NCBI GenBank assembly: GCA_030052745.1
Contig: JANBVO010000001.1
Coordinates: 868,001-932,000, forward strand
Length of the DNA stretch: 64,000 nucleotides
Direction of reading: 5' to 3'
From: Pleurostoma richardsiae
Lineage: Eukaryota > Ascomycota > Sordariomycetes > Calosphaeriales > Pleurostomataceae
Shown here: positions 5,759 to 38,709 of the stretch, piece after piece
How the letters are laid out: each line of letters opens with the position of its first letter
Position numbering within the stretch: the stretch's first letter is position 1
Position numbers and translations under genes: made by a program
The notes under the pieces: generated by a model
Told to the model about the DNA's origin: nothing
Database searches by the model: none
Seen by the model: the letters and a program-made list of their open reading frames with translations, nothing else

Positions 5759-7045
5759 TCAGTGAGCCTTCACACCAGTGGGTTGAGCATTCGCATCAGC
5801 CCAGTTCGCACCCTCCTTGTTGATGTTCTCTGCATCGTGGCTAAACAGCCACTTGCGCCTATCATCGTAGCCCCAGAAGACAGGATTCTCCGCCGCGTTC
5901 CTCCGCATGCGCTCGTCCCGCGCCACCTGCTCCTCGCCATCGTCGATGTGCAGAATGTACTGGTGCTCGCGCGTCTTGGCCTGCACCAGCGTCGCCCGCG
6001 GCATCCGGATGCCCTCGTACGTCTCGAGCGCCGCCGGCAGGTCCACGTCGCTGGCCAGGCACTGCCGCAGCACGGCCGCGTCCTCGAACGCCTGCGCGGC
6101 GCCCTGTGCCAGGTACGGCAGCATGGGGTGGCACGAGTCGCCGAGCAGGACGGCCTTGCCGGAGGGGTGCGTCCAGCGGGTCAGGTTGGGCAGGTCGCAC
6201 AGCCGCCACTTCATGAAGTCACCGGTCAGCGCGCACAGCTTCTGCACGCGCGGCTCCCACTTGGCGAAGCGCTCGCACAGCTCGCGGTTGTCGCCCTTGA
6301 CGACCCAGACCTCGTCGGTCGTCTCGTTGTACGAGGTCGCGCACACGACGATGTTGTACAGCTCGCCGTTGCGGATGGGATAGCCGACGAGGTGGGCGTC
6401 GGGGCCGCACCATGAGGTCGTGCAGGGGTCGGTGATGAGGCTCGCCAGGTCCGGGTCCGCCAGCAGCTTCTCGCCGGGAATGAGGATCCGGTACGCGACA
6501 TCTCCGGTGTCGCGCGGTACGTCAGGCTTGCCGGTGAGGAGCGGGCGCGCAATCGACTTGATGCCGTCTGCGCCGATGATGAGGTCGGCCTTGTAGATCT
6601 CGCCCTCCTGGGTCTTTGCATAGGGAGCATCGAAGTCGTACTCAATCACTCTCTTCTTGGTAAAGATCTTCACGCCTGCATTCTGAGCCGCCTTGAGGAG
6701 ACCTGCGTGCAGATCGGCACGGTGGACAAGGTAGTAAGGGGCGCCGTGCGTTTCGACAATGTTCTCCATGGGCAGCTTCGTGATGGTGGAGCCATCTTCC
6801 CAGCGGACGAAGTGGTACCGCTTGGATACTGACTTCTTCATGTTCTGCAGGTCGACACCCCAGCGGAGGAGCAACCGGCTAGAGTTGGGAGGAACTCTAA
6901 TACCCGCACCAGCCTCGGCGAACTCGGGCGCCGAGTCGATGATAGTCACTCTGTGGCCATCTGTCTGCAGCGCAAGACCGGCCGCCAGCCCTCCCAGGCC
7001 AGCGCCGACAACCAAAATGTCCATAGACCGTGAAGCTTGCGGCAT
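5759..7045 (-). CDS. FAD-dependent aromatic hydroxylase, salicylate-hydroxylase type
   Basis: Intronless, 428 aa, the usual length for single-component class A flavoprotein monooxygenases. Three hallmark motifs are in order: the N-terminal FAD fold VVGAGLGGLAAGLAL (about residue 12), the DG motif ADLIIGADGIKS (about 160) and the GD motif AVLLGDSCHPMLPYLAQGA (about 300). The HPMLPYLAQGAAQAFEDA form of the GD motif is typical of fungal salicylate hydroxylases. Family role: NAD(P)H-dependent hydroxylation, for salicylate with decarboxylation to catechol. Related enzymes act on 3- or 4-hydroxybenzoate, so the substrate is inferred from motif and context. It faces the MFS carrier at 7965 across 919 bp that contain a CGG-N10-CCG site at 7414-7429. 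Confidence 0.88.
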   Translation of the reverse strand: MPQASRSMDILVVGAGLGGLAAGLALQTDGHRVTIIDSAPEFAEAGAGIRVPPNSSRLLLRWGVDLQNMKKSVSKRYHFVRWEDGSTITKLPMENIVETHGAPYYLVHRADLHAGLLKAAQNAGVKIFTKKRVIEYDFDAPYAKTQEGEIYKADLIIGADGIKSIARPLLTGKPDVPRDTGDVAYRILIPGEKLLADPDLASLITDPCTTSWCGPDAHLVGYPIRNGELYNIVVCATSYNETTDEVWVVKGDNRELCERFAKWEPRVQKLCALTGDFMKWRLCDLPNLTRWTHPSGKAVLLGDSCHPMLPYLAQGAAQAFEDAAVLRQCLASDVDLPAALETYEGIRMPRATLVQAKTREHQYILHIDDGEEQVARDERMRRNAAENPVFWGYDDRRKWLFSHDAENINKEGANWADANAQPTGVKAH

Positions 7046-7964
7046 TTTGTGCGAGGATCTCTAGTGTATTGCGAAAGGAACTGATAAAGGGTATCTCGTA
7101 TGAACTGGGAAATGCCTGAACCGCTGGTCCTTGGGCCTTCTCTTGGCGACGCCGTCAGGTCTTTCTTATATTTCTTTTCTATGGGTTTGTTGATGGAGAA
7201 GATCCCAGATTCAAAACTCGGTGTTTGAAAGACCGGCCTCGCCACAATGCCCGCCTTTGTTCCCGGAAGAGCCGCTTCAATATCTCCAGTGATGCAGCTG
7301 GATGCAGCCATCCTGTCCCGGAACAGTAAACCCGGCTGCTGAGTCTGTTTCGCTTTGAGGATGGAGTCTGCTTCCTTGTGTTGGTGAACTAAACCGACGC
7401 GAAAACCTTCGTTCCGGATCCATGCTTCCGGTGGTGGGCTTTTCCCTAGTCACGCTTCACTCTTCTCTACTTTCACCCCCCGCAGGACTCCTCCCCCGCG
7501 TAATGTGGGAACACCCTCCACAAATCCTGGGGTAGTAGTCGGCTCGTCTTATTACCCCAGGATTGGAAGGGCTGGAGGGTTGGTTCAGTTGTACGGAAGT
7601 ACAACACAACCAGTCTTATCTGTTAAGCAGTGACCGCCAGTGAGGTGACTCTCATTGTGTGTGGTCCTGCGTGGTCCCGACTGTCTCAGCTTGGCTTCCT
7701 CGTCTTTTAAACGAATCGTGCAGACCAAATTAGAAGTGTCCCTCGCGCAATGTAGCATCCCTATCATGCTTTTGTGTAGAATCTTGTACTCAAAACAAAG
7801 TGTTGGCAACCGTATATCTGCAATCTCCACCCCAGCATTCAGAAGCAAACTCGAGATATATAATCCTCGATGCCAATCACCTCGGTTGACAGGCCGCCCT
7901 TCCCTTGTTAAGGCGTTTTGCCGCTTTTGTTTTTCCGACTCGTCCATTCACCTTTGCGAAAGAG
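7046..7964. promoter_or_regulatory. Divergent promoter of flavin monooxygenase and MFS carrier
   Basis: 919 bp between two start codons. It holds the shared cluster motif at 7414-7429 and a second CGG-N10-CCG site at 7319-7334 that lacks the common core. No coding sequence is supported. Confidence 0.55.
7414..7429. promoter_or_regulatory. Candidate operator CGG-ATCCATGCTT-CCG (cluster motif copy 1)
   Basis: Gapped palindrome with 10-bp spacer, of the type bound by Zn2Cys6 dimers. It sits 369 bp upstream of the flavin monooxygenase start and 536 bp upstream of the carrier start. The core YAYGCWY is shared with copies at 12717, 16396 and 18666. Confidence 0.6.
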
Positions 7965-9551
7965 ATGTCGTCCCGTTCTGTGCATGATGATGCTGTGCTG
8001 GAGAAGCAAGATGTCGAGCATGTGGAGTCCAACTCGGTGTATGAGGAAGATGCTGTCGAGGCGAAGAAGGTCATCCGAAAGATCGACTTCCGCCTTATTC
8101 CTCTGCTGATGTTCCTTTACACCCTTACCTTTCTCGACCGTGTGAACATTGGCAATGCCAGACTCTGGCACCTCGAGCGCGACCTCGGCATGTCGGGATA
8201 TGATTACAATATCGTAGTACTCGGTGAGCACTCATCGCGTCTAAGCTTAATGAGGTACAGAACTGACATTGCGTCCCCAAGTATTTTACATACCCTACAT
8301 CCTGCTTGAAATCCCCTCCAACATGATCCTCAACCGCGTCCCGCCGCGCTACTGGGTTGGCTTCCTCACCATGGGCTGGGGCCTCTCCGTCACCTTCGCC
8401 GGCTTCTGCACCAGCATGGGCGGGCTCGTGACCGCGCGCATCTTCATCGGCATCTTCGAGGCCAGCATGTTCCCCGGCTGCCTCTTCCTCATCGGCTCCT
8501 GGTACCGTCGCCACGAGCTCGTCACTCGCATGGCCTGGTTCATGGTCTCCAATGACCTCGCCGGCACCTTCTCCGGCTTGCTCGGCGCCGGCCTTGGTTC
8601 CATGGACGGCGTCCGCGGCTACTCGGGCTGGTCGTGGATCTTCTTCGTCGAGGGCTCCGTCACCTGCTGCGCCGGGGTGCTAGCGCTGCTCTTCCTGCCG
8701 CCCTTTCCGGAGGAGTCAACCTTCCTAAAGCCGGAGGAGAAGGCCTGGGTGCTACGGCGGCTGAAGAGCGACGACAATAACCGCACCAAGGAGCAGGCGA
8801 AGATGGGCCTCAAAGGCGTCCTGAAGGCTCTTGGAGACTGGAAGGTCCTCACTGCTGGCGTACTCTACCTCGCCGTGTGCGTCACGGCATACTCACTCTC
8901 CGTCTTCCAGCCGACGGTCCTCAAGACCTTTGGATGGTCGGACCTCAAGTCCAACCTCCTCAGCGCACCCGTTCGTGCGGCATCAGGCGTGGTGTCCGTC
9001 ATCATGGGTATCTGCAGCGACAAGCTTAAGAGGAGAGGCATATTCTGCGTGTGTGGCTTTTTGGTCAGCATCATGGGCAACCTCCTGGTTATGCTCCTGA
9101 CCAACGGTAACTTGAGGTACATGGGTTTCTACTTTGCCGCAATTGGCATCTACATCTGCCAGCCGCTCGTGATTGCATGGTGGTAAGTCTCCTTCGCAAC
9201 CCTCCCTGAAACCAGGCTTCCTGACACGGAGCCACAAATAGCATCAATCAGGTCGTAGGCTACACTAAGCGTGGTACGGTGACCGCCTTTGCCGTCAGCT
9301 GCGGTCAGGTCGGCGGCATCATCTCCTCCGTCGTGTTCCCGTCCAAGGACGGGCCGCAGTATGTCCCCGGCATCTCGACCTGCATCGCCTTTCAGGTTGT
9401 GGGCCTTATTGCTGCTGTCAATATGTGGGTGTGCTGCGGCTGGGAAAACAAGCAGCGTGAGAGTGGCAAGAGAGACCACCTGCGCCAGTTAAGCGATGAG
9501 GAGCAGGAGAAGCTGGGCGAGCGCCATCCAGATTTCCGGTATACTCTTTGA
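7965..9551 (+). CDS. MFS transporter, anion:cation symporter (allantoate/nicotinate permease-like)
   Basis: Exons 7965-8223, 8282-9182 and 9242-9551; introns of 58 and 59 bp; 489 aa. The start MSSRSVHDDAVLEKQ is followed by KKVIRKIDFRLIPLLMFLYTLTFLDRVNIGNARL, the signature of the fungal Dal5/Tna1 ACS family. Further on are VFYIPYILLEIPSNMIL and AWCINQVVGYTKRG, also family typical. These carriers take up carboxylates such as allantoate, nicotinate, pantothenate or aromatic acids at the plasma membrane. The divergent pairing with a salicylate-hydroxylase-type enzyme and position inside the aromatic cluster suggest an aromatic-acid importer (inference). The C-terminal tail RDHLRQLSDEEQEKLGERHPDFRYTL is the usual cytosolic end. 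Confidence 0.9.
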
Positions 9552-9728
9552 TCGGTCACGATGCCAGGAATGGGAAGAAAGTATTGACAGCGCGGATAAA
9601 GGGGTTGACACCCTGGTCATGAATTAATGATATCATCTATCGTGCATGAACAGTCGCGTGCTCGCGTTCGCAAAGTCTGCCGGCGAACTGTGTGCCAAAT
9701 GACCCATAAGATGCACAGAACGCCCCCG

Positions 9729-12408
9729 TCACGGTGGCTGCCCATAAGTGCCGAGCATGGTCTCAATATCCGCCCAGTCCATCATCGAAGCATCAGTGCC
9801 TGCACCTAGGAATGGGCCCACCCACGAGTTGAAGTCGGGAACACCCTCAAACGTCACCAGTCCCTCTGCCGTCCATGTATCCGGCTGCGAGCTCATGCCG
9901 GGGAACTGTCCACCAACTCCTACTGCTTGATGAGATGGTAGAGACGCGGCCTGTAACTGAGGATCTATGACAGAGCCATCGGTAGGTGCACGAGCATCCG
10001 CCGTGGCGGGCGCGGGCTTCCGCGACCTCTCGTTGTAGACACTCTCCTCGAAGTTCGCCATCACCCGTGCGAAGCGTTTCATGGTCCCGCTCTTCTCGGA
10101 GCGTGTAACGGCTTCTCGGAGCTTAGTTGTGAGGTCCCTTAACGTGAGTAACAGGGCAGATTCTTTCTCGTATGCGCCTTCGTTGGCTGTGTCGCGCTGC
10201 CTCAGGGACCGCAGGATGAGGACCATGGCCGCGCAATAGGCGTAGAAGACGTCAAGGCCTGAGATGCCGTTGACAAGATTGAAGCAGTCGAGTAGCAGCA
10301 CGATCCTGCTCAGCTGGCATGCGTGTGCGACGCATATGTCGGGGAAGTCCATTAGCCCCTGGGGTTGAGTTGTCGCTATTGGTGACGCTATGTTTCTTCT
10401 GCCAGAAGCGACGCTGCGATAGAGAAATGGGCGGGTGACGAGTATGGCGATGTTGTGATACTGCAAGTGCATTAGGAGAGCGGCCCGAAGTCGGGTCCGG
10501 TTCTGCCAGCCGAGCATCAATTTGAGCTCGTCGAACCGCATTGAAAGTCCTGGCGAGGATGGGAACGGATCCCCGGCCTCAATAATAGAAGGTATGTCGA
10601 GGCCTTGGCGCTTCGCGACACCAACCTTCCAGTCTCGCAATGAATCGAGGATAGCCCTCGCGGATTCACGATGCCGCTCGAGGTCGTATCCCGGCCCAGA
10701 AGCTCCAGCTACAGAAGGCACAAGACGGGCTTTGGATAGGATCTTCTGTAGCTGCACAGAAAACGACAGAAGTTCATCGTCACCGTCCTGGCCGCCCCCG
10801 AGGAGACCCTCCCTAGGCGGCATGACCTGCACGTCCATGTCATTAAGCCCGCTAGGCCTCCCGAGGCTAGAAGCGAGAAACTGCTCGAACGTGTAGAGCG
10901 TGCAGAACACGCGCTTGCGGACTTCCCTCTCAATCGGGCGGAACGAGGTGCTGGTGTCAGTCCGATGCAGACCGAGGGCGAAGCAGATCCTGGTGGCGGT
11001 GCCGACGAGGTTCCAAGCCGCGTTACGCTCGTTATTGTTGTGCAGGAATAGGCTGAGGAGCAGCAGCGCTCGGGCGTTGTTCAGTGTGCACTTGCAGAGC
11101 AGCTGTGGAAGCAGTTTTCTGGTGATGGAAACGCAATGCCGCCGCAGAGTCGCGTGGTCAATCCCGTCGGTCTTGGCGTCAGACATGGAGCCGAACACCA
11201 ACATCATGTGCAGGCAGCCGATCCATCCGTGGTCGGGCTGCGACGAGCTTAGCACATCCCTCCGGCCGGGTGGGCCGCGTAGTTTAAAGAAATGGGATTC
11301 GAATTCTTCCTGGAATGTCCCTCGATGGAAGAGAGGGAAGTCTTCATGGACATTCCTGAAGAAGGACTGCAGTAGGAGATCGACCTTTGCCTGTGGTGGA
11401 AGAGGTCTGAGGAGTTCCTCTGTGCTGTCGAACTGTTGCCGAGTGAAGTCCTTGGCAATGGACGAATTGATCGAGCCCGGTGAGAGCCCGTCTTGGGGAA
11501 CCGCTTGGGTCAAGTGCTGCTCATGGGTGATGTCTGCCGAATCCTCGGGGTTGCCGTCCGTCTCCAGCGCCTGCGCCGTGTCGTCTTCAGCGAATCTCGA
11601 GGCCGGTGTCGGGTCGTTGACATTGTCGGCATTGCTCTCCCTGCGGCTGAGCAGGCGACGGAGCTGGCGGAAAAACTGCAGGCTGCCGGAAGGCCCGATG
11701 TAGTGTTCCCGGCCGGAGGTGTCTCGGATCAAGCCCAGAGGCTCCACCTCCTCGCCGGAGGGGCACTGCTCCTGGTCATCTTGGCGGGAAGCGACTGTCT
11801 CCGCCCTAACGGAGTTTCCTGAAGGCAGAGGCTGGCTGATGGTTGACCCAGCTTCCGAAGGAGGCGGCGTGCTGATCAGTTCCTCGAGTTTGGCATTGTT
11901 TCCGGGCCTCCGGGACAGGTCGGGCATATCATATCCCATGCGCTGACCTAGCTGCACCAAGTCTGCAGCAGTGGCAATGGGCTCGTTGGGGAACGCGCCC
12001 CGGACGATAGCCTCCAAGCACTTGTAGCTGGCGGAGTGTTAGCGGATCATGTCTACCGAGGCCGGCTGGTCCTGCCGGTAGATCAACTCGATATCTCACC
12101 GGTCGCTGAGGTCATCTAGACTCCCGTAGAAGCGGGTCTTCCGCGGCAGTGTGTACGAGCAGTCGGCATTCTGCGCCTGACAGGCCACGCATCCTTGGCC
12201 TGACGGCGCCGGAACGCATTTGCATCGTTTCTGCGCAACCAGTCAGTCTCGGATGGTGCTTGCTAGAAAACAGGACAAAATGGGACCGGAAACACCAAAG
12301 AACGTAACGTACATTGCGACAGAGATCGCAGGATTGGGAACTCCGCTTCCGCAGCTCGTCGGGTATCCGCCGAAGGCGCCTCTTCGCTGCCGCTTGACCT
12401 TCGGCCAT
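9729..12408 (-). CDS. Zn2Cys6 transcription factor, candidate regulator of the aromatic cluster
   Basis: Exons 12313-12408, 12100-12230 and 9729-12027, introns 82 and 72 bp, 841 aa. The zinc cluster is split by the first intron: CDLCRN, then KRCKCVPAPSGQGCVACQ and QNADC, giving Cys at 27, 30, 37, 46, 49 and 56 (C-x2-C-x6-C-x8-C-x2-C-x6-C). A basic stretch KRRLRRIPDELRKR precedes it. A Fungal_trans (PF04082-type) middle domain follows, around VDLLLQSFFRNVHEDFPLFHRGTF. Proteins of this class bind CGG triplets as dimers in the nucleus. A CGG-N10-CCG site lies 309 bp upstream of its own start, and three more lie upstream of the enzyme genes, so self-regulation and cluster control are likely but inferred. 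It is convergent with the MFS carrier. Confidence 0.9.
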
Positions 12409-13652
12409 GATGCCCTCACTCACCCTCACTTGGTGGATCGCTCTCGGGCCGCTAGACAGGCAGGCTGGTGGGTGGAACGGCGCTAGAACAGCAGTGGGAG
12501 AGGAGGAAGCATCGAAACGATGCATCCCCTTCTCCTGTGTGGGGTCTTTCGTCTCTTATTGTTTCCCCAGACACGCCCAAGTGCCGGTCAAGCCCTGTGA
12601 TTCCCCACGCCAGCAACTTTGCCCTAACGCCCCAGCGCGCCTAACTATGGCACGCTACCCTGGGGCTGATCTAGTCTCTCTCCGCTTTCGTAGCGTCGTT
12701 TCCCCGCAAAAGAGTCCGGAATCACGCATCCGGATCTGCCAGGCCGCTTCACACTCGAGAGAAGGGAGCAGCAAGACGAAATCTCGAGATTATTCAAAGG
12801 TACTGAAGGGTTTAGATGCTATTGAGCTTCTTCTATGTGTGTATAGATAGAAAACAAGGGTCCACAATCAGAGGCCGAGGATGCAGACGACAGGAAGAGC
12901 ATGTGAAGCGGAAAATTGAAGGGAAAACAAGCAAAAGCGGAAATAAACGCGAGGAGATTGGAGTGGCCGGGGATAAGCCATGCATAACGCCTCACCAATC
13001 TCTTTGTCTGCTCATATCTCATTTCCTCAAAGAAACTCTGTCAGTATGATAGAGCATCTCCTCAAGGCTGTCGATGTTTCACTTGCATGGCTGGCTCATC
13101 TGCTCCCTCACTTCTTCGTTATCCGCCAGGGTGATGCGCCGATCTTGACTCTACAGTTCCATAAGAAGTTTCAAGAACCAAAGAGGAGACCGCGCATCCT
13201 TCGCTGCCACTAGGGTGGTCACTAATGCTTGCTAAACCACAGCCTATGGTCACGCGTCTCCTCGCTGTCGACGCCGATGTTGTCCGGCGTCTCCAGAACC
13301 GGAGCCAGCCAAACATGAAAAGCTCCGTCGGTCGGATGGAGCAGCATGTAACCACAGAGCACACCCTCAAGGTGTAGAGGCAGGAGGCAAGGTTCCCTTG
13401 CAGATGGCTAAGAACTTGACTATCGGCATCGGCTCTATTCGCCATTCGTGCTCTCAGCCACAGTTCCACTCAGGGACCACACGTGGGCGTCGCATCACCC
13501 CCCCAGTAGCTCGTCATCTTCAGGGTCTTGCAGTTGGAGAACAAAGATTCCAATCCAGGTCGTGCTCGCTGTTGAACAGTAAGCCACCAGCAAAGTGTCT
13601 ACTTGCCCTCAGAAACGCTACGCCAACAGTTCTGCAGCTGCGTCTACACACC
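12409..13652. promoter_or_regulatory. Divergent region between regulator and enol-lactonase
   Basis: 1244 bp with no supported gene. It holds motif copy 2 at 12717-12732 and a CGG-N11-CCG site at 13285-13301 without the core. ORFs at 12407-13213 are chance frames. Confidence 0.5.
12717..12732. promoter_or_regulatory. Candidate operator CGG-AATCACGCAT-CCG (cluster motif copy 2)
   Basis: Same architecture and core (YAYGCWY = CACGCAT) as copies 1, 3 and 4. It is about 309 bp upstream of the Zn2Cys6 regulator start and 920 bp upstream of the enol-lactonase start. Confidence 0.55.
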
Positions 13653-14590
13653 ATGGCAACGTCAAACGCTTCAACACTTACCCTTTCCGACGGCCGTGTG
13701 CTTTCGTAAGTGCTCTACCATATATTACCCTGTCTGAACGCGATACTGACTGGCTGCGAAGGTACACACTGGCTTCGACGCCGGAGAAGGGACCTCTCAT
13801 CCTGCTCTCCAACTCGCTCTGCGCCGATCAGACCTCCTGGGACCTTGTCGCAGCCACACTCGCTGCCAATGGCTTCCGCGCCCTCCGCTATGACCAGCCC
13901 GGCCACGGCGGCTCGAGCGCGCCCGCTAATCTCGCCTCCACAACCTTCGAGACCCTAGCTGACGACGTCTACGCTCTGCTGAGGCACGTCAGCCTTAGCG
14001 ACGGCAGCAGCACCGTCTCGGCCTGCGGCGTGTCCATGGGCGCAGCCACCCTCGTTTACTTCGTCGCGAAGTACCCTGGCGTGCTCGACAAGGTCGTCAT
14101 CTGCGACACCATATCCAGCTCGCCCGCCCGCGTTGGCGCCCCGGACGTCTTCGGCCCTCGTGTCGCGGCTGCGCGGCAGGCAAGCTCCATGGAGCAGGTG
14201 TTGGAGGGCACGCGGGAGCGCTGGTTCGGACGGAAGTGGATAGAGGCTAACCCAGGGGAGGCGGCGCGGATGCGGACGCTCATGGCGTCCGCTACGCTCG
14301 ATGGGTTTGAAACTTGCTGCGCGGCGCTGCGGGACCCTGGGTTCGATCTGAAGCCGCTGCTTGGGAAGGTCGGGGCTGGCTGCGGGGGCGCGCTGCTCAT
14401 TGTTGGGGAGAAGGATGCGGATCTGCCGGTCAAGATGGAGGAGATGAGAAAGGGGATAGAAGAGGGATTCCGTGCTGCTGGGAAGGAGAACAAGGTGGCG
14501 CTTAAGGTTATCAAAGATGCCGGGCACGTCTGCTACATCGATGGGTTCGAGGATTTCACGAAAGAGTTGCTCAGCTTTCTGTCTTCCTAA
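13653..14590 (+). CDS. Alpha/beta hydrolase, 3-oxoadipate enol-lactonase-like
   Basis: Exons 13653-13705 and 13762-14590, intron 56 bp, 293 aa. Start MATSNASTLTLSDGRVLSYTL fits the short N-terminus of PcaD-type hydrolases. The oxyanion region is LSNSLCADQTSW, where bacterial PcaD also has an NSLG-like turn. The nucleophile elbow is CGVSMGAAT (Ser near residue 113), the acid is in IVGEKDADLP and the catalytic His in DAGHVCYIDG. The reaction would be hydrolysis of 3-oxoadipate enol-lactone to 3-oxoadipate in the cytosol, the last shared step of the catechol and bacterial protocatechuate branches. Fungal protocatechuate catabolism runs through 3-carboxymuconolactone, so this gene fits better downstream of catechol made by the salicylate-hydroxylase-type enzyme. 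It is convergent with the FMN dehydrogenase. Confidence 0.82.
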
Positions 14591-14738
14591 GAGGCGCTTT
14601 ATGATGCTGGTAGGATGTGAGAGCTACAAAGAACGAATCTTATAGAATAGACAATTAGACTTCGGCTTACCTAGCGACATCTCCCATGCTAGCGGGAGGC
14701 ATCCACACTCAGTCTCATCCACGCCAAGGTTCTCGCTC

Positions 14739-16173
14739 CTACAGTTTGCTGCCCGTCAACGTCCGCACCGGCATCAAGAGTTCTGGCCGAAGTTCGTCGA
14801 GGCTGACACACCCAGCCAGGGCCATACACGCCCTGAACTCTTCCTCCAGCAGCTTCAGTGCGTTCCGGAGTCCGCTTTCGCCGTCATATGCTATTGCCCA
14901 CAGAGCAGGCCGTCCGATCCAGACCACATCCGCCCCAAGGCACAGCGCCTTGAAGATGTCCGATCCTCTCCGCACGCCGCCATCAAAATGCTTTGTTAAC
15001 CTCTGTCAGCAAGGCGATATGTGCTAATTCTATGTGGGACGAAGCTCTTACCACGGGGACGCGGCCATCGACTGCGGCCGCTATGTCACGCAAGACCTCC
15101 AGTGTCGGCGGGGCGTGGTCCAGCTGCCTGCCGCCGTGGTTAGATATGAATATAGCATCGGCGCCGTGTTCAACAGCCAACATGGCATCGTCGACTGTAA
15201 GGATGCCCTTGAGCCAGATGGGGAGCTTGGTGATGCTCTTCAAGTACGCGACGGCGTCCCAGGTCAGGGTCGGGTCTTTCAACAGTTAATGGCCGCCTTT
15301 TCACCGCCTCAATCTTGTGGACACTTGCCGTTCTTGTTGGGAGGTGGGGCTGTAGACGTTCCTGTCGGGCTGCTCGTCGGTTCGCCTGCCTTTTCCTTCG
15401 TAAGGTCGTTCGTTCGGTGTTCAGAGCCTGTCTTCACGCCCAGTGTGTCCGGGAAGTTGGCCATCTTTAGATGCGGTGGGACCCTGAAGCGGTTCCGTAT
15501 CTCGGTCAGACGTCTTCCAAAATACGGCGTGTCAACCGTGAGAACAATTGCTTTATAACCCGCTTCTTCCTGAATATTAGTGTCGTATCCCAGTACGGTC
15601 GCGGCATACAATCTCTGAGGCGGCTTACTTTCTGCCCTGCGGATGAGATCTTCGCTGGTTGACCTGTTCTCGAAGAGATACATCTGTAGGACGCACTCAC
15701 TCTCTCCAGACAACCCGGCACTCTTTCTGGATTCATCTGTTTGGAGCTTAACATCCTCGAGAGACGTCGTGCTGAAACTGCTCAGTCCCATGACTGTTCC
15801 AAAAGACCCACACGCTCTCGCTGTGGCTTCCTCCCCGTCTGGATGAGCCATCTTTTGCATCGCCGCTGGCGCAACACAGCCTGTGGCAGCTCGAGTCAGC
15901 AGGGGTCGCCAACGCGAGCAGCTCGAACCACCACGTACAGGGGAATGGTATTTCCTTTCCATCTGGGAAAACCTTGGTGCTAATGCTTAAACCGGACACG
16001 TCTCGAAGCACACGTGGTTTGATGTACCAACTCCTGAACGCACTGAGATTGCCGCGCAGCGTGACGCTGTCTAGTGCTCCTCCGTTAAAGTAGTCCCTAA
16101 CCATTTTCGGGAGGTATTCGGAGGCATATTGCTCGAAGTCATCTATGGAATAGAGTTCTGGCTTGGAGACCAT
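14739..16173 (-). CDS. FMN-dependent 2-hydroxyacid dehydrogenase/oxidase, mandelate-dehydrogenase type
   Basis: Five exons: 15939-16173, 15629-15880, 15329-15565, 15052-15275 and 14739-14990; 399 aa. Introns are 58, 63, 53 and 61 bp. The 53-bp intron (15276-15328) uses a GC donor (GCAAGT) and restores KNDPTLTWD; the 63-bp one is stop-free and in frame but has a CACTAAT branch site, and its removal gives AEKAGYKAIVLTVDTP. The family core is complete: VAPAAMQKMAHP, VLTVDTP, LPIWLKGI (Lys), ISNHGGRQLD (catalytic His and Arg) and FDGGVRRGSDIFKALCLGA. There is no cytochrome b5 domain, so it is not a flavocytochrome b2. Where bacterial (S)-mandelate dehydrogenase has a membrane-binding loop, this one has a hydrophilic Pro/Thr/Ser-rich loop. 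Mandelate as substrate is inferred from the neighbouring ThDP enzyme and ALDH. Confidence 0.83.
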
Positions 16174-16539
16174 GTTTGCTGAAGATAGTGGCTCTATTGT
16201 ATTGGCGAGTGGGGTTGGAGTCTGATTCACAGCTTGTGATACAGGAGAACGACCTGGTGAGGCGATCACCTATGTTTTGGCCACGGTATAACGGGGGACA
16301 TTGTCCAGTCAATACAGAGCGCCATGTTACAATCAGATTAAGACTTTGGTTAGAGAGTACCTGTGGCTGGTGTCAATATCTCTAGGAGCCGTGCTCGGGT
16401 GTATGCTTCCGCTTTTCACTGCAGTAGATACTTACCAGCCCCTTGACCGGACACTAACGACTTCTCTGTGCTTCATTCACGTCGTATCTCGAACGTATGA
16501 GAGAATATGAGGTTGCAACGCGATATGATTAGCATTTAT
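16174..16539. promoter_or_regulatory. Promoter region of the FMN dehydrogenase
   Basis: 366 bp between the ThDP gene stop and the FMN gene start, both on the minus strand. It holds motif copy 3 at 16396-16411. Confidence 0.5.
16396..16411. promoter_or_regulatory. Candidate operator CGG-GTGTATGCTT-CCG (cluster motif copy 3)
   Basis: It ends with the same ATGCTTCCG as copy 1 and lies 223 bp upstream of the FMN dehydrogenase start. Confidence 0.6.
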
Positions 16540-18422
16540 TCAAATCCTCGCTATCGCAACTTCTACTAATGCGCTTCTCTTTTCCTCTCTGACCACCGAG
16601 ATGGCCTTCTTGATAACATCATCCACATCCCCAACCTGATCAACCGTAGCCCACCACGCATTGCCCGCCCCCTCTGCAATCTTTCCAAACGATGGTGAGG
16701 GCGTGATAGCAACCATCAAATCATCGCTCAGCGACGACTCTTGCGTTCTCGACTGCGCAGCTATCTCAGGATGGATCCGGAGGCACGCGTTCTTCGGCGA
16801 CGCCCACCCTCCGTTGTTCCAGATGACGGTCAAGAACGGCGTCCCGTACTTGGCGGCCATCCAGTACGCGCAGCTCGGCACGCCGAACAGCCAGGTGCCG
16901 TCTCCCGTAAACGCGATCACCAGGTCGTCACCGCGCCCCTCCGCCTGAAGACCCAATGACGCACCGACGGCGCCGCCGGAGTACCAGCCCAATGAGCCGC
17001 CACCACTGCCTATGAGCGATAGCGCACTGTCATGCCGCAAGTGGTCGGCCACGTTGCCGAGGTTCGTCGTGGATTCGTTCAGGCCGACCACGGTGATTCC
17101 CGCGCACGCTTCTCGCAACCGCGACATGAAGAAGGGGACCGTGAGGCCCTGTGCTGGAGCGGCTTCGGCTTTGAGCAGCCTTGCTTGCCTGGTTTGGAAA
17201 CGCTCTTCTAGATACGCCTGTCGTAATAAGATGCGCTGCTTTGTCTTTTCTTCTCCGAATAAGGGACTGCTCTTGACGGCTTCTGTCAACTGCGCGAGTG
17301 CCAACGATGAGTCAACCCTCCACCTCTTCTGGCACGGTAATGACCAGAGTGTAGTTCCCTCTTTTAGGGGGTCGCTGTCAAGGTGGTAGATGGCTGCCCC
17401 AGGATTGGGCTTCGACTGGGCGCCGATCCACGGAACATCTGAATCGACAACCAAAACTACGTCCGCTTCCGCAAGAGCAGGAAGCTGGCCACCACCGTTC
17501 CATTGATGTCCCTGATGCAGATGCGATGTAGTGGGGAAGTTGTTATAGATGGGTGCATTCTCATGCACCGCAATGGAGACAAGTTCCGCCAGTGTCTTCA
17601 ACGCAGTAAAGCCCTCAGATGACCTGCCGCAGTAGCTAGTCACTACCAGAGGCCTTTCGGCGCTTAGCAGGACAGTAGAGAGCTCTTCCAGCGCCTGTGG
17701 GCCGAGTCCCGTAGGTTCTACACCGAGATTTCTTTTAGGATCTTGTGATGGGATATCGCCAAGGAGGGCAGCAGGAAGAGCAACGTCTTCTTCTAGAGTC
17801 TCTCGACTTGCGATGAGATATGCCGGCCCCTGGGGATCGGACATGATAAACTGCATTGCTCTCAGAATGATCTGAGTAGCATTATGGGGCCGTCTGATCT
17901 CATGCTCATAACGCATGTACTGACGGACAATTGCACGCTGATCAGGCACGTCCTGGATCCAGTGAATGTATCTGTACCATGGGATGAGCCCACGCCAATA
18001 CGACCAAGGAAGCTATAGGGGCCCCAGACTCACTCGTTTCGGCTGCCCTTAAGCTCTCCTTCCATCGTCACAGGCACCGTTCCCGCCAGGATCATAACTG
18101 GTATACGGCCCTTACTGACATTATGAATCGCGCCGGCGAGCCCCTGAGTCCCGCACTCGACGTGGACCAGAACAGCCGCTGGCCTGCCCGTCACCTGCGC
18201 AAAGCCGGATGCCGCTGACAGAGCATTCATCTCATTTGGCGAGGTGAAAATGTGAACTTTAGAGAACTGTTTGCTCGCGAATGCGGAGAGGAATGCCGGA
18301 TGGTCCGATCCCAGGTTCACAAAGAGGTGCGTGATGCCGGCAGACTCCAGGGCCTGCAGAATGACTGCGGCTCCGGTCATGGTCTTCATCGCCTTTCCAT
18401 CCGTGTCTGTAACGGACCCCAT
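16540..18422 (-). CDS. Thiamine-diphosphate enzyme, benzoylformate-decarboxylase-like
   Basis: Exons 18034-18422 and 16540-17971, intron 62 bp, 606 aa. The N-terminal Pyr domain has VNLGSDHPAF, the ThDP-activating Glu in SPNEMNALS, and LVHVECGTQG. The PP domain has GDGTWLFGVPSCAYW followed by IWNNGGW, the classic GDG-x(24-27)-NN metal/diphosphate motif. Against bacterial benzoylformate decarboxylase, the active-site Ser (GS), Glu and first His (LVH) positions appear kept; the second active-site His (His281 in Pseudomonas) is not obvious. Other members of the fold are acetolactate synthase and oxalyl-CoA decarboxylase. Position between an FMN 2-hydroxyacid dehydrogenase and a divergent aldehyde dehydrogenase favours decarboxylation of benzoylformate (or a related aryl-glyoxylate) to the aldehyde. 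The start is the first ATG in frame; a few residues either way are possible. Confidence 0.8.
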
Positions 18423-19016
18423 ATTGTCCAACGGCGTCTCTGTGTTGAACGGAGATGAACACAGGATACGAGATGCTTCAAGGACCCTTGACTAATCTTC
18501 AAAGACTGCAAGATCTCGGCCGACCAAAGCCTCGGAGCTCGTTCAATTCGAACCTCCACGCGGCTATTGTACTTCTCCGGACGCCGCCCGCTCCGTCCCC
18601 GCTCCATCTAATTACGGCGGGTCTCTGCTGGCGGGAATTGCCAGTGTCTACCACGGCGCCGTCTCCGGATCTATGCACCCGGCGCGGGGGTTAGTAGATT
18701 CTCTGCATTACCGTTCTCCGGGGCCACACAGCCGCTACCGGAACGCTGGACGAGACTTGTGCTACAGAAACTGGTTGACCAACCCCATACGGAAAGGCCG
18801 AGATCAGGACGTCGTGGGGAACTAGTACGTCTCACCTTCGGAGTCTACTTTTCTACGCCAGAGTCCCCTTGTCAGCTGTGAAGTAGGCGCTCAGGGATTA
18901 CTCAAGCCTAGCTCAGAATCTCAAGCGCAGTCATATCGCATAAGCACTTTAGCAATCTTACCGTCCTACCGACGAATATTCCCTTTCACCTTCTTCAGCG
19001 GCAAGAGCTTGAAGTT
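18423..19016. promoter_or_regulatory. Divergent promoter of ThDP enzyme and aldehyde dehydrogenase
   Basis: 594 bp with motif copy 4 at 18666-18681 and, just beside it, a CGG-CG-CCG palindrome at 18654-18661. No coding sequence is supported. Confidence 0.55.
18666..18681. promoter_or_regulatory. Candidate operator CGG-ATCTATGCAC-CCG (cluster motif copy 4)
   Basis: Only three spacer bases differ from copy 1. It is 244 bp upstream of the ThDP gene start and 336 bp upstream of the ALDH start, so it could serve both. Confidence 0.6.
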
Positions 19017-20673
19017 ATGGCCCCTCACGCAGACTCGGACGTACAGAATGGGGGGTCGAGCGGATCGACGTTATCACAACCCCAAGAATTGTTCATCGGT
19101 GGGAAATACCGTTCGAGCTCTGACAATTCGACTTTTCCGGTGCGCAACCCTATGACGGGAAAGGTCCTCTACAACTGCGCATCGGCTACAAAAGACGACT
19201 ACTCGGCCGCGATCGAGGCAGCCCACGAGGCCTATCAGAAATGGTCCAAGACTAGCCCCTCGGCGAGGAGGCTAGTCTTCCTCAAGGCCGCCGACATCCT
19301 TGAAACATACCTAACTACAGACGGCCCTGAAGTGCTCTCGGCAGAAGTCTCAGCTACCAAAGCGTGGGTGAAGGTCAACATCCTGGCCACTGTGGGGATT
19401 CTTAGGGAAACGGCGGGGCTTGTTACTCACATCAAAGGAGAGATCGTGCCTGCTGATCGACCAGGCACCACAATTCTCGTAGAGAGACATGCTGTAGGCG
19501 TGGTTTTAGCCATCAGCCCCTGGAATGCACCGGTGAGAAACATCCTCCATGGCGAACTCAGTCATCGAAATGTGCTAATGCGAATCCCAGGTAAACCTGA
19601 CGGCGCGTGCTATCGCATGCCCCCTAGTCTGCGGAAACACCGTAGTCCTGAAGCCGTCTGAATTCAGCCCCAAGAGCCAGCACCTCGTCGTTCGGGCCCT
19701 GACCGCCGCGGGCCTCCCGGCCGGCTGCCTGAACTTCCTGCCGACGAGCCCGCAGCAGGCTCCGGCGGTGACGGAGCTGGCCGTGAAGCACCCCAAGGTC
19801 TTGCACGTCAACTTCACTGGTAGCGACCGTGTGGGCCGGATTATCGCAGGGTGGGCCGCGACGTGCGTGAAGCAGTGCGTGCTGGAGCTCGGCGGCAAGG
19901 CCCCCGTGCTCGTGCTGGAGGACGCGAACGTCGAGGACGCAGCCGAGGCTGTAATCTTTGGCGCGCTGTCCAACAGTGGACAGATCTGTATGTCAACCGA
20001 GCGCGTCTTCGTGCACAAGTCTATCGCCCCGGCATTCAGAAAGGCGCTGCTGGACCGCGTCGGGACGCTGAAGGTTGGTAACCACTTGGACGATGCGGAC
20101 GTCTCCATCTCAGGACTGTATACGCCTGAGTCCGCCACGAGAGTCTTGCAGCTTGTGAAGAGCGCTGTCGACGGCGGTGCGAAACTTCTGACGGGTGATC
20201 TCAAGATCAGCGGACCGAATAAGACAGTTATGGCGCCTCATATACTCGAGGGTGTTACCCCTAACATGGACGTCTTCCACAAGGAGTCATTCGGACCAAT
20301 CCTGTGTCTGGAAGAGTTCGACACCGATGAGGAAGCCATCGTCATGGCCAACAACAGCGAGTTCTCGCTAGCCGCCAGCGTCTTCAGTCGTGACGTGATG
20401 CGTGCTCTCGATGTAGCCCGACAGGTAAGGGCCGGTAGCTGCCACGTGAATGGCCCTACTGTCTACATTGAGGCCACCCTACCCAACGGAGGGACGGGTG
20501 GTAGCAGTGGATACGGCAGATTCGGTGGAATTGCCGGTGTTGAGGTTCGTACTCCCCAGTTGCTATTGCCGTGTAACTACGGCGCCTTTAAACGACGACT
20601 AACATTAGCACAGGAGTTTACCGAGCGGAAGATCATCAGTCTAGCCAAGCCTGGGATGAAGTATGCGTTCTGA
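19017..20673 (+). CDS. Aldehyde dehydrogenase, benzaldehyde/salicylaldehyde/vanillin type
   Basis: Exons 19017-19532, 19591-20544 and 20614-20673; introns 58 and 69 bp; 509 aa. Order of motifs: ISPWNAP, VLKPSEFSPKSQ (cofactor Lys), NFTGSDRVG (in place of the usual FTGS-x-x-x-G), the general base LELGGKAP and the nucleophile SNSGQICMSTERV. The sequence resembles the aromatic-aldehyde ALDH branch (salicylaldehyde and vanillin dehydrogenases). It would oxidise the aldehyde made by the divergent ThDP decarboxylase to benzoate or a ring-substituted benzoate with NAD(P)+ in the cytosol. The last intron separates only 20 codons (EFTERKIISLAKPGMKYAF), typical for fungal ALDHs. Confidence 0.9.
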
Positions 20674-34050: not shown

Positions 34051-36312
34051 ATGTTTTCTGCTACTTCGCGTGCCCGGTCACAAGCTCCTGTTGCTGACCG
34101 CGAGGGCTCCATTCCCCTCGTCCAGTCATTTAAAGTGTAAGTGGGAAACGTTCTCCGAGATCTACGGCAGCATCTAATCCCTGCGCAGGTGGTAAAGGAC
34201 ACCCCTGCGCCCGGTGCGCGAGGAAAGGCATTCGTTGTGTCTACGACAGCGGGACAAACTTCCGCTTTCGCCACATCTCCACGTCCAGGTAAGGTCTCCC
34301 ACGTCGCCCAGCTATTTCCGGCCCGGTGTTGATCTTGACTACAGCGGCAACGTCAAGTCCCAGTATGCATTTCGCGAGGACCAGCAGTGGTGCCCAACTT
34401 CGAGCAAGAGGATCAGATTCGTTGATGAGAGTGAAGACGTGGCAAATATCTACGGAGATGACGATGCCGAACCAGATGAGATTGCCGAGCTCGCCAAGGA
34501 GGCAGTAGGCGACAGCAGCCCGTCTGCCACAAGCCATTCACAGCCTACGCCTACACAAGGCCCAATCTGGCCCGAAACGGGTCGTTCTGGAGTGGCCACG
34601 GAGCCTAACTGGGACGTCTCACCGCAACAAAACAGCCGAAACCGGTTCCAAGCCAGCTTTGCAGGCACGCGCTGTGCTTCCTTTTCTATCCAGGAGATCC
34701 GGAGCCCGACGGCAACGGACAGCTGTGCTTCTGGCAGCACAGAGGTCCAGAGCTCTAATCAGGCCGAGACACCGGCCCTTACTCTGCCGTGCGCCGAGCG
34801 TTGGGAGGCCGAGCTGATGCGGCACTTCACGGACCGCATTGCTCCAATCTTCGATCTCTGCAACCCGGATCAGTATTTCTCATCGACTATCCCGCAGATC
34901 GCGCTCGCGTTCCCCGTCCTACTCAACGCCGTCTTTGCCGTCTCAGAAAAGCACTTGGTCTACTCTCAGCACGCTGGTTCCCAAACTGGGAGGGCGCGAA
35001 AGTATTTCGATGAATGTACACAAAACATCGCACGTATGTCGGCGGAGCAAGCCCCAGGCGTGAACGGGAGTCTCTCCGCCGCTGTCGTTTTGCTGTCATT
35101 CTGCGAATCTATAGAAGGTACTGTATTATCGGTTGTACCTTTCCCACTTTCTTCTCGTTGACCGCGAACATGCCTTGGCTACTTCTGCCTCCTCGTAGAC
35201 TGTAGCGTGGACCGTCCTGGGAGGGAATGTTCATCGTTCTCGCAGATCACTGTCACTAATCCCTCGTCCGTCTCATACAGTGCCCTTACCCGACCCGGAC
35301 GCATTAAAGCCGCCCCAAAAAACATGCACTCTTCTACACTCAATCACAGAATCGGCTTTGGCTGGTGCGTTGCACAGCGCAGTCTTCTGGGCCGGCCTTC
35401 GCCAGGCCATCTATGCCGCCATGATCAAGCAGACTCCTATCACCCCATTCATACCATGCCACCTTCTCGACCATCCCCTCGAGCCTGCGGAAGATCACGT
35501 TTGGGCGAACAGGATGGTCGCGCACTTGTTGAGCGTCATCTCTTACTGCTTTGGCGATGACAAGCGCCCGTCTACTTACGATTCTCTTTGCAGTTACGCC
35601 GCGGCATGGACGGAAGCCAAGCCATCGTCCTTCTCGCCCGTCTTCGCGAGGCAAAAGCCGAGAGAGGGCGGGACTTTTCCTGAGATATTGCTTCTTAGCG
35701 AAGCCGCCGTGGTCGGAACGCAGTATTACCACCTCGCGCGGATTCTTCTCACCGCACACAACCCAAAGATGCCGCGACTAGGCAAGGGACAGAGGCTTGC
35801 GGCGAGCCTGATGGTTGTTAGTGCCATTGCCCCCCTTACACCTGATTTTGGTGAGAGACTGTGAGATAAGTGCTGATATGTGGTTTCCAGGATGAGATCA
35901 AGAAAGATGTTAGCGTCATCTGTGGCATAGCAGAGTCGATTGGCAAGGTCAATCCTGCCTACGTGTACGTTTCATCCCGATTACTCTCGATGAGCGAACT
36001 ACTATATACTCACTAAATGATGAAGCGCCGCGTCCATGGCTGTTGCCCTTGGTGGAGATAACTTCACCCGTCGTGACGAGCACGAAGCGCTGTTCAGCAT
36101 CCTCATAGAGACGGAAAAGGAGTATGGGTGGTCTACGTCTTTGGTGTAAGTGCCCTCCCTAGTATCTGTCAGACACGCTCAACCTACCATCCAATCTACT
36201 GGGGTCCTGACTTCATGCAAGTCAACAGCACATGAAAGAGGCATGGGAGTGGCCTAGTGATACCGTTATATATCGTCCTAGTTCGTCCAAGATATCGATA
36301 CCTGCCCGATGA
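34051..36312 (+). CDS. Zn2Cys6-type fungal transcription factor with degenerate first half-cluster
   Basis: Proposed exons 34051-34076, 34126-34136, 34189-34288, 34345-35117, 35281-35850, 35907-35964, 36026-36145 and 36222-36312, all in phase, 582 aa. The start is uncertain. The joined N-terminus reads MFSATSRARHLKCG, KGHPCARC and ARKGIRC. Cys 13, 19, 22 and 29 fit a Zn2Cys6 cluster exactly, but the first two ligands are Ser3 and Ser6 at the right spacing. It continues FRFRHIS, an acidic linker (EDVANIYGDDDAEPDE) and the middle-homology region of fungal regulators (ALTLPCAERWEAELMRHFTDRIAPIFDL), ending KEYGWSTSLV and MKEAWEWP. The 163-bp gap 35118-35280 may hide one small extra exon (about 35199-35228). 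The family is nuclear and DNA binding. It is convergent with the reductase gene. Confidence 0.7.
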
Positions 36313-36481: not shown

Positions 36482-38709
36482 TTATCCCCAGACGTCCTCC
36501 TGCCACTTCCGAGTCCGCTTCATGCCCTCACTCCACTCCCGCGTCTGCGTCTCGTCCCACCCCTTCTCACTCCTCATAGCCTCGCTCACCGCCGTCCCAG
36601 CGTCGCGCGCCATCGCCGCCCGGCCGCAGAAGTACAGGTTCGCGTCATCCGTCAGCATGCTCACCACTTCGCTGCCTCGCTCCCGCACGCGGTCCTGCAC
36701 GTAGGCACGCTTTCCCTCTTCCTGCCGGGAGAAGGCCGTCACGACACGCAGCTTGCCCCGGAGCGCCGCCTCCATCTCTTCCAGTTCGTCTCTGTAAATG
36801 TAGTCCTCGTCCGGTCGCCTGCAGCCGAAGAAGAGCAGCATGGCTCCGACCGGCTTGCCCACGGTCTGCAACCGCAGCCGCTCTGCGATGAAGGCGCGGA
36901 ATGGCGCTAGGCCTGTGCCGGACGCGATCATGACGAGAGGGCACGAGGCCTGGACGGGGAGGCGGAACTTGGACTGCCGCACGTGCGCGTGCACGCGGCA
37001 ACCGGCGAGAGTGCGCACAGGGTCCGGCATGCTGTAGGTCAGGCCATCCGGATGCTGAGGGTGGCCGGCGTCATCAGCCCGAGACAGTGCGAGCAGGAAG
37101 TTTGTCGCGAGGCCCGGGATTGAGCTGGGCGTTGGACCGACTAGTAGGGTGTCAGAGACCGAGACGGTGATGGAGGGTCTGCGCGGTGAGATGACACTCG
37201 AGGAAGAAATAGAGTAGTAGCGAGGCTGGGTGCGCGGCAGCGTCTCGATGAGGTAAGAGACGGGGAGGTTCGACCAGGTGGTGCCAGCTTCGCACGCTGT
37301 GGCGAGTTCAAGCAACCTGCCGATGTTGACATGGGTGGTGGACAGGAAGTGCGAGTACGTGTCCTTGTCCTTGCTCTTTTCCAGGAGAAATGTCTTCGTA
37401 GCCGGGGATGGGGCGAACTGCACCAGGCTGCGCAGGATATCTCGAGGAATGGGAGCACAGATCTCCAGGTAATGGCGGAAGAGCGTGTCGATCGTGAGCG
37501 GCGTCGGCACCTTGACCTTGCCGGCTGGGTCGAGCGCCCGCACGGTGATAGGCACATGGCGGCGTTCCGAGAGCCCCAGCACGCTGATGAGCCGCTCAAC
37601 TTCCTGGTCTGGGTTTACTGGCCAGACGGCTAGATGGTCTCCTGTCCGGTATTTGACTTGCGGCTGGTCGTTGAGGTCAAGTTCCAGGTGCAGGCACCTT
37701 CGGCCAGCGGAGGCGAACAGGTCGCAGGATCTCTGAATCGGCAGAGCCTTGATGGGCGAAACAGCCGCAGACTTCCCGGTTCCCTTGACTAAGTGCACTG
37801 GCTCTCCGGCGTGCAGGTCAGCCAGCTGCAAGGAGTCGTCTTCCACCACTTCCAGAGATGCATCATAACTGGCTTCATGCTCCTCTAGGAGGAGTCGGTC
37901 GTGGAAGAAAGCAAAGAGCTCCTCAGTCCACGCAAGGAAATCCTCCGTGGTTGTGCCCGTGGCGTCGTCAGCCCTGCCGACAGTCGCTAGGCGCTGCGCA
38001 TCACATTTTACCAGAGCAGCGTCTGACACGTCAACAACACGATTGTAGTGAGGGTAATCGCTGTTCCCGAGCCCAAAGATGCCATAGCGAAGAGAGGACA
38101 GAGAATCCTTGGGCAAGCGTGTCAGCCAGTCCAAAAATGCCGTGGCGTTGTCGCTGGGGTCACCATCGCCGTAGGTCGAGAGGATGAAGATGGCAATCTT
38201 ATCCCGGGGAATCTGGGCGATGCTTTCTGGGTCGAAGTCTGACAGGTCTGCTGTCAGTGCCTCCAAACAGAAGCGCTGGTGCAGCTCCCGTGTGAGCCGG
38301 TGGGCAAACCTCTCTCCCCTGCCGGACTGAGAACCAAAGAAAACAACAGCGTCCTTGCCCTAAGACACGACACATTAGTCCGATAGCTAAGTGAGTGCCA
38401 AGTGATTGTGTGCCCGAGGGATCTTACGAGCTCCTCCAATCTTTGCGCGATGTTCCGGGTCGTAGCGTTTGCACCATGGCGCGCGGCATCGTCTGCCTGC
38501 GGCCTCTCGTAGTATATATAACGATAAGGGTCCGGCTTGTCCCATGTATGCTCACGAAGCAGCCAGGCCACAGAGGTCAGACCCGCTGCTGTTAGAATAG
38601 CGACGTCGGCATATCCTGACGGCACAGCGAGCTTCAGGAGGGAGGAGAGACTCCGGGTGACGTTGAAGTCGTCACTTGCAAATACGTCCATCATAACAGG
38701 GTGCGCCAT
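36482..38709 (-). CDS. NADPH-cytochrome P450 reductase-like diflavin protein
   Basis: Exons 38428-38709 and 36482-38359, intron 68 bp, 719 aa. The N-terminal anchor is YADVAILTAAGLTSVAWLL. FMN domain: VFFGSQSGRGERFAH (GSQTGTAE in the housekeeping enzyme), LSTYGDGDPSDNA and FGLGNSDYPHYN. FAD domain: QPRYYSISSSS. NADPH domain: IASGTGLAPFRAFIAERL and YFCGRAAMARDAG, ending RTRKWQEDVWG with the usual DVW near the C-terminus. It passes electrons from NADPH through FAD and FMN to microsomal P450s. Changes such as GDGDPSD for GEGDPTD suggest a paralogue rather than the main genomic copy. A P450 lies 7 kb away across the transposon, so a dedicated partnership is likely (inference). Confidence 0.9.

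What the first reader, a model, noticed from the sequence alone, without database searches (positions are those of the whole stretch)
7414..18681. Shared operator: CGG-N3-YAYGC-WY-CCG at four upstream regions of the cluster
Spacers read ATCCATGCTT (7414), AATCACGCAT (12717), GTGTATGCTT (16396) and ATCTATGCAC (18666), each between CGG and CCG with exactly 10 bp. The sites serve the flavin monooxygenase/carrier pair, the regulator itself, the FMN dehydrogenase and the ThDP/ALDH pair. CGG-N10-CCG alone would occur by chance some 15-25 times in 64 kb; the five to seven fixed spacer positions make four hits, all in the right promoters, very unlikely by chance (rough estimate well below one). Zn2Cys6 dimers bind CGG triplets with fixed spacing (Put3 uses N10). 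A conserved spacer core is unusual and suggests added specificity.
Basis: partly seen in the sequence, partly recalled or inferred. Interest (0 to 1): 0.88.

Follow-up and report, generated by a model that had tools for sequence, protein, structure and literature searches.

The report
Shared control site in mandelate-type cluster
Four promoters of a fungal gene cluster, probably for breaking down aromatic acids, carry the same short DNA motif, likely the docking site of the cluster's own zinc-cluster regulator; it is a sound prediction of a familiar kind, and binding has not been tested.

Summary
The four sites are real (7415, 12717, 16396, 18666; the first is one base off). They are very unlikely to be chance: of 20 matches to the pattern in the 39.4 Mb genome, 4 lie in this 11.3 kb, and permutation and leave-one-out tests agree. 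The site is better written CCGG-ATCYATGCWT-CCGG; three of the four have CCGG at both ends. The only other exact copy in the genome lies 350 bp upstream of a Zn-alcohol dehydrogenase that is divergent from an MFS frame. A weaker copy lies upstream of a P450 with relatives named 3-hydroxyphenylacetate 6-hydroxylase. The likely binder is the cluster's own Gal4-type Zn2Cys6 protein; its homologs appear to share a contig with the ThDP enzyme in 12 named fungi. N10 dyads with fixed spacers, read by a cluster's own activator, are already known (qa-1F, Otf1), so the fixed core is not unusual as claimed. Conservation in orthologous promoters and binding could not be tested. Verdict: a genuine predicted operator, a new member of a known kind.

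The parts
7414..7431 (+). Operator 1, CCGGATCCATGCTTCCGG, between the divergent FMO and MFS genes; identical to the 18-base consensus
   Evidence: 370 bp from FMO ATG (7045), 535 bp from MFS ATG (7965)
12716..12733 (+). Operator 2, CCGGAATCACGCATCCGG, 309 bp upstream of the regulator's ATG; a second CGG-N10-CCG (12731-12746) overlaps its last CCGG
16396..16411 (+). Operator 3, CGGGTGTATGCTTCCG (no CCGG flanks), about 223 bp upstream of the FMN dehydrogenase candidate ATG (16173)
18665..18682 (+). Operator 4, CCGGATCTATGCACCCGG, between the divergent ThDP and ALDH genes
   Evidence: 244 bp from ATG 18422 (or 277 bp from 18389, the start in P0241), 336 bp from ALDH ATG 19017
5759..7045 (-). FAD monooxygenase; among its three nearest solved relatives are ones named 4-hydroxybenzoate decarboxylase (8gsm) and decarboxylative vanillate 1-hydroxylase (8x38); best NCBIfam model, below its cut-off, is 3-hydroxybenzoate 6-monooxygenase
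7965..9551 (+). MFS carrier, split by intron(s); downstream end taken from the last open frame, not verified
9729..12408 (-). Zn2Cys6 regulator, 841 aa; exons 12408-12313, 12230-12100, 12027-9729; zinc cluster CX2CX6CX8CX2CX6C
13653..14590 (+). Alpha/beta hydrolase, nearest NCBIfam model 3-oxoadipate enol-lactonase (below its cut-off); divergent from the regulator
14739..16173 (-). FMN-dependent 2-hydroxy-acid dehydrogenase (PF01070), several exons; stop at 14739; exon borders and start not settled
16540..18422 (-). ThDP enzyme, 606 aa (595 from the start used in P0241); exons 18422-18034 and 17971-16540; weakly benzoylformate-decarboxylase-like
19017..20673 (+). Aldehyde dehydrogenase (PF00171) in two open frames

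Best explanation
The four sites are one operator family, consensus CCGG-ATCYATGCWT-CCGG, bound by a homodimer of the cluster's own Gal4-type Zn2Cys6 protein. Each zinc cluster would read one CGG of the inverted pair; the fixed 10-bp spacer and its YRTG core would be read by the linker and/or the conserved basic stretch before the zinc cluster. When a (hydroxy)mandelate-type aromatic acid is present, the regulator would switch on the carrier, the FMN dehydrogenase (acid to keto acid), the ThDP decarboxylase (to aldehyde), the ALDH (to benzoate or 4-hydroxybenzoate), the FAD monooxygenase (oxidative decarboxylation to hydroquinone) and its own gene. Shown: the sites, their non-chance clustering, the gene families, the intact zinc-cluster sequence. 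Inferred: the binder, dimer geometry, inducer, substrate and direction of regulation.
For: Clustering: 4 of 20 genome-wide exact matches in 11.3 kb. N10 the most over-represented inverted spacing in the promoters. Permutation, resampling and leave-one-out tests. No wider similarity between the four promoters (one 19-base match at E up to 1, at the sites of the first and fourth), so not duplication. The 18-base consensus matches exactly at only two places in 39.4 Mb, operator 1 and C63:92791, with about 0.007 expected by base composition. The latter lies between a divergent MFS frame and a Zn-ADH, 350 bp from its ATG, and the best match between it and the operator-1 promoter is the 19 bases at the site. 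At 2 mismatches, C48:294725 lies about 500 bp upstream of a P450 whose relatives include proteins named 3-hydroxyphenylacetate 6-hydroxylase. Only the inverted CGG-N10-CCG reading is common to all four sites. The regulator has a complete zinc cluster, and its family profile aligns to GAL4; basic arm and zinc-cluster region are conserved in most of the 19 homologs aligned.
Against: No binding or expression data. 16 exact matches lie elsewhere, at background frequency; 11 of the 16 fall in open frames of 130 aa or more, but so do operators 1 and 2, so this measure separates them poorly. Operator 3 lacks the CCGG flanks. Operator 2 has 3 mismatches to the consensus and fits the core better in reverse. 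C48 is a weak match: 1 of 99 background spacers scores higher. No good site in the fetched ring-cleavage dioxygenase stretches. Species in both homolog lists with different contig lengths: three Sporothrix and Verticillium longisporum; also V. dahliae and Stachybotrys chartarum, where the records look like different assemblies or strains.
Confidence: 0.72

Rival explanations
1. The motif is a real shared operator, but bound by another regulator (one of the many other zinc-cluster proteins, or a heterodimer), with the local regulator acting elsewhere or downstream.
For: The genome encodes many related regulators: the local one used as a probe found 57 matching stretches, some of them exons of one gene. 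Outside copies at ADH/MFS and P450 promoters on other contigs could belong to a broader regulon. A site in the regulator's own promoter fits control by another factor as well as by itself.
Against: The best-matching sites concentrate in the cluster that carries this regulator, and the regulator appears linked to the ThDP enzyme in many fungi. The stretches fetched around two paralogs (L035, L036) hold no good site.
Confidence: 0.17
2. The dyad is read in another geometry: because CCGG is its own reverse complement, three of the four sites could also be everted CCG-N12-CGG or direct CGG-N11-CGG repeats.
For: CGG-N11-CGG is strongly over-represented in the promoters, 12 against 3.1 expected, and CCG-N12-CGG 4 against 1.4.
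Against: 10 of the 12 and 4 of the 4 are N10 dyads with C/G flanks counted again; operator 3 (TCGG-N10-CCGC) keeps only the inverted N10 reading.
Confidence: 0.08
3. Chance: the pattern was written after the sites were picked out of 35 candidates in the window, and nothing binds there.
Against: Tests that do not reuse the pattern and an exact fifth copy in a promoter on another contig.
Confidence: 0.03

Closest known systems
Candida parapsilosis Otf1 and its GGR-N10-WCC site (PMC8929692; passages seen)
   Same: Zn2Cys6 activator inside a hydroxyaromatic gene cluster; asymmetric dyad with a 10-bp gap; chief target is MNX1, a decarboxylating monooxygenase gene, the kind of enzyme nearest to this cluster's FMO among solved structures; motif found upstream of several pathway genes
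   Different: Triplets are GGR/WCC rather than CGG/CCG; binding shown by gel shift there, not here; homology of the two regulators not tested
Neurospora crassa qa-1F 16-mer GGATAATCGATTATCC (as quoted in PMC8929692)
   Same: Catabolic gene cluster with its own zinc-cluster activator and a 16-bp dyad whose spacer is fixed
   Different: Other end triplets and spacer, other pathway (quinate)
Put3-type CGG-N10-CCG site of yeast (spacing recalled; PMC5559640 passages only place Put3 among proteins that read CGG pairs)
   Same: Inverted CGG pair at the same spacing
   Different: Proline pathway (recalled); spacer sequences and proteins were not compared
Aspergillus niger SdrA and its cinnamate/sorbate cluster (PMC6776626, passages seen)
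   Same: Clustered aromatic-acid genes with a local Zn2Cys6 regulator that controls them
   Different: Different enzymes; the passages say motifs suggested for cdcA and padA do not occur in the neighbouring genes

Membership tests
Gal4-type Zn2Cys6 regulators | CX2CX6CX5-12CX2CX6-8C zinc cluster near the N-terminus (definition recalled) | tested here: met
   Spliced model gives CX2CX6CX8CX2CX6C; a profile of the regulator and 19 homologs aligns with GAL4 chains 7uik and 3coq at E 4e-4 and 7e-4. Pfam was run only on the exon with the regulatory domain.
Gal4-type Zn2Cys6 regulators | Fungal_trans regulatory domain (PF04082) | tested here: met
   E 8.7e-24
CGG-N10-CCG (Put3-spacing) operators | Inverted CGG pair with exactly 10 bp, shared by the promoters of one cluster | tested here: met
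   4 of 4 sites; N10 is the top inverted spacing among 0-25
CGG-N10-CCG (Put3-spacing) operators | Bound by the cognate zinc-cluster dimer | not testable with these tools
   Needs gel shift, footprint or ChIP
Pathway-specific operator | Conserved in orthologous promoters | not testable with these tools
   No DNA encoding a relative of the regulator was found in the two collections scanned
qa-1F / Otf1-type site (GGR-N10-WCC) | GGR and WCC at the two ends with a 10-bp gap | tested here: not met
   The shared dyad is CGG-N10-CCG; inside operator 1 GGA and TCC are 8 bp apart, not 10 (sequence)
Everted CCG-N12-CGG site | Outer CCG/CGG present at every site | tested here: not met
   3 of 4 sites; absent at 16396

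The most novel reading that the evidence does not exclude
One zinc-cluster regulator joins an otherwise unlinked regulon for side-chain aromatic acids: the mandelate-type cluster, an alcohol dehydrogenase/MFS pair on another contig, and a phenylacetate-type P450. Specificity would come from an extended 18-bp CCGG-flanked operator whose spacer core is read by the conserved basic arm before the zinc cluster.
Probability: 0.3. Interest if true: 0.5.

Novelty: new member of a known kind. Interest (0 to 1): 0.36.

Why it matters
If right, it gives a testable operator and regulon for a fungal (hydroxy)mandelate-type catabolic cluster. Five paper searches naming this pathway or the N10 site showed no such fungal cluster or site in the listings seen (2 papers; 0; 5; 10 of 1,272; 10 of 201), which is far from a full search. 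It would also give a proposed DNA site to a zinc-cluster family with relatives in Sordariomycetes and in some Aspergillus and Penicillium species; whether a site for that family is already in print was not searched. The principle itself is textbook.

Tried and rejected
Chance: judged very unlikely. Duplicated promoters: BLAST between the four promoters finds one 19-base match at E up to 1, at the sites themselves. Motif as a general aromatic-gene element: 14 fetched stretches of 3.1-3.8 kb (all 10 PF00775 matches, of which 4 are pieces of one gene; 4 of 14 HgmA_N matches) hold no N10 dyad scoring above -3.07, so not supported. Bare core with CCGG flanks: 44 strand rows, 39 places, 3 in the cluster, control 29 rows, only a mild excess overall. 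Orthologous DNA: genome contigs and viral contigs gave none. Paralog stretches L035 and L036 hold no good site. L019's P450 was judged by eye not to be the benzoate-hydroxylase type and was not tested for that. Six places outside the cluster match the consensus with 0-2 mismatches (9 strand rows in all, control 4): two are promoter-like (C63, C48), three lie in open frames of 267, 728 and 729 aa, and one (C71) is ambiguous, with no Pfam hit in the 4 of 7 frames tried. One search's background was GC-richer than the sites, so one search repeated the test with composition kept. Four other paper searches looked for comparators; one search gave the Otf1 paper.
Full report
What was checked. The four 16-mers exist as described, apart from a one-base offset at the first. 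They fall in the four upstream intervals of a compact cluster: FAD monooxygenase and MFS carrier (divergent), Zn2Cys6 regulator and alpha/beta hydrolase (divergent), FMN dehydrogenase, and ThDP enzyme and ALDH (divergent). Distances to presumed start codons are 223-535 bp, except the hydrolase, 921 bp from the regulator's site.

Host. The window lies in a 39.4 Mb assembly of 136 contigs. The ThDP protein is 100% identical over 98% of its length to a protein whose truncated name begins 'Pleuros', on a contig of 2,408,833 bases, the same length as contig C1. With the taxonomy entry this points to the sordariomycete Pleurostoma richardsiae (inference).

Is it chance? CGG-N10-CCG occurs 14,942 times in the genome, 24 per 64 kb, and 35 times in the window. 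Since the pattern was written from the sites, other tests matter more. (a) In the four promoter intervals, of all inverted spacings 0-25 the N10 pair is the most over-represented, 7 found against 1.55 expected from 172 kb of fetched background, or 1.12 from the genome rate, Poisson 1.6e-4. With 78 spacing/orientation classes tried this alone is only suggestive. The 172 kb includes 16 stretches fetched because they hold the pattern, which raises the expected value slightly. (c) Resampling 7 of 99 background spacers: 0 of 1,500. The pattern-selected sites of L009-L024 were left out of that background, and it is GC-richer than the sites; both favour the result, which is why (b) was run. (d) Leave-one-out: the left-out site is equalled or beaten by 0, 1, 2 and 1 of 99 background spacers. 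The promoters share no wider similarity.

What the site is. Three of the four sites have CCGG at both ends; so does one further dyad with an unrelated spacer, 7318-7335. With CCGG-ATCYATGCWT-CCGG, exact matches occur at two places in the genome, operator 1 and C63:92791; operator 4 has one mismatch and operator 2 three; operator 3 is not among the listed rows. At up to 2 mismatches there are 9 strand rows against 4 for the control, and at up to 3, 101 against 73, so the motif is specific only at its best scores. The C63 copy lies between an MFS frame read leftward and a Zn-ADH read rightward, 350 bp before its ATG; nearest solved relatives are ordinary alcohol dehydrogenases, so no aromatic substrate is shown. 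The C48 copy (2 mismatches) lies between an M19 dipeptidase and a P450, about 500 bp before the P450's ATG. The P450's best relatives include proteins named 3-hydroxyphenylacetate 6-hydroxylase and 'related to cytochrome P450 phenylacetate hydroxylase'. This copy is weak on the spacer matrix, 5.6 where one of 99 background spacers reaches 8.0, so its support is mainly positional. Because CCGG is self-complementary, everted and direct readings are also possible at three sites. CGG-N11-CGG is in fact the class with the strongest excess (12 against 3.1), but 10 of the 12 are N10 dyads with C/G flanks counted again, as are all 4 CCG-N12-CGG, and only the inverted N10 reading is present at operator 3.

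Other exact matches. Of the 16 outside the cluster, 11 lie in open frames of 130 aa or more. By the same rough measure operators 1 and 2 also do, so it separates them poorly. Four of the 16 have CCGG at both ends (L012, L013, L017, L019). Pfam on frames near 9 of the 16 named a Zn-ADH, a short-chain dehydrogenase, a P450 and a kinase.

Who binds. The regulator's spliced model (exons 12408-12313, 12230-12100, 12027-9729) has a regular zinc cluster, and a profile of it and 19 homologs aligns positions 27-119 with GAL4. The basic stretch RRIPD..RKR before the cluster and the PRKTRFYG..DDLSDR stretch after it are conserved in most of the rows; four rows have gaps in the zinc cluster (P0030, P0034, P0036, P0100), probably mis-spliced models. 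Three Sporothrix species and Verticillium longisporum show different contig lengths; V. dahliae and Stachybotrys chartarum do too, from what look like different assemblies or strains. One annotated protein fuses FMN_dh with ThDP domains (P0305), as neighbours would. So the regulator seems to belong to a conserved cluster, which makes it the first candidate for the binder.

What the cluster does. The FMO is nearest to proteins named 4-hydroxybenzoate decarboxylase and decarboxylative vanillate 1-hydroxylase among solved structures, with one unnamed FAD protein between them; its best NCBIfam model is 3-hydroxybenzoate 6-monooxygenase, below cut-off. The ThDP enzyme is weakly benzoylformate-decarboxylase-like; its best NCBIfam model is an unnamed thiamine-pyrophosphate enzyme, with benzoylformate decarboxylase second for the larger exon, both below cut-off, and its relatives carry names such as acetolactate synthase and pyruvate decarboxylase. 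With FMN dehydrogenase, ALDH and an enol-lactonase-like hydrolase (below cut-off), a mandelate- or 4-hydroxymandelate-type route to hydroquinone is the simplest reading, but the substrate is inferred. The mandelate route in fungi is recalled from older work and was not seen here.

Comparison with what is known. Passages of PMC8929692 show the closest precedent: C. parapsilosis Otf1, a Zn2Cys6 protein of a hydroxyaromatic cluster, binds GGR-N10-WCC in the MNX1 promoter by gel shift, and its motif is asymmetric; the same passages quote the fixed qa-1F 16-mer. A conserved spacer is therefore familiar. Put3's N10 spacing is recalled. PMC12625712 and PMC6776626 passages show other fungal aromatic clusters run by local zinc-cluster proteins.

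Verdict. A real, non-chance, shared regulatory element, most likely the operator of the cluster's own regulator: a new instance of a known kind. Binding, conservation and the wider regulon remain to be tested.

Noticed in passing
window 7318-7335, 12731-12746, 18719-18734: Three of the four promoter intervals hold a second CGG-N10-CCG with an unrelated spacer; the one at 7318 also has CCGG at both ends, and the one at 12731 overlaps operator 2.
   Followed up: partly
G000:C63:92791 (L013:4892-4909): The only other exact 18-base match in the genome lies between a divergent MFS frame and a Zn-ADH; GH7 and GH10 glycosidase frames lie within about 7 kb.
   Followed up: partly
G000, 14 matches to HgmA_N: Matches to the homogentisate dioxygenase N-terminal family at nine separate places, which looks like a large set for one fungus.
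   Followed up: no
window 9729-12408 and the P450 at L027:2544: Neither has an identical protein among the 120 listed homologs (best 63% and 75%), although the neighbouring ThDP protein does; both may be missing or mis-modelled in public annotation.
   Followed up: no
window 36482-38266: A flavodoxin/FAD/NAD reductase of P450-reductase type, in the same window as a P450 (27515-28981) and two more fungal regulator domains (34214-35161 and 53769-54635).
   Followed up: no
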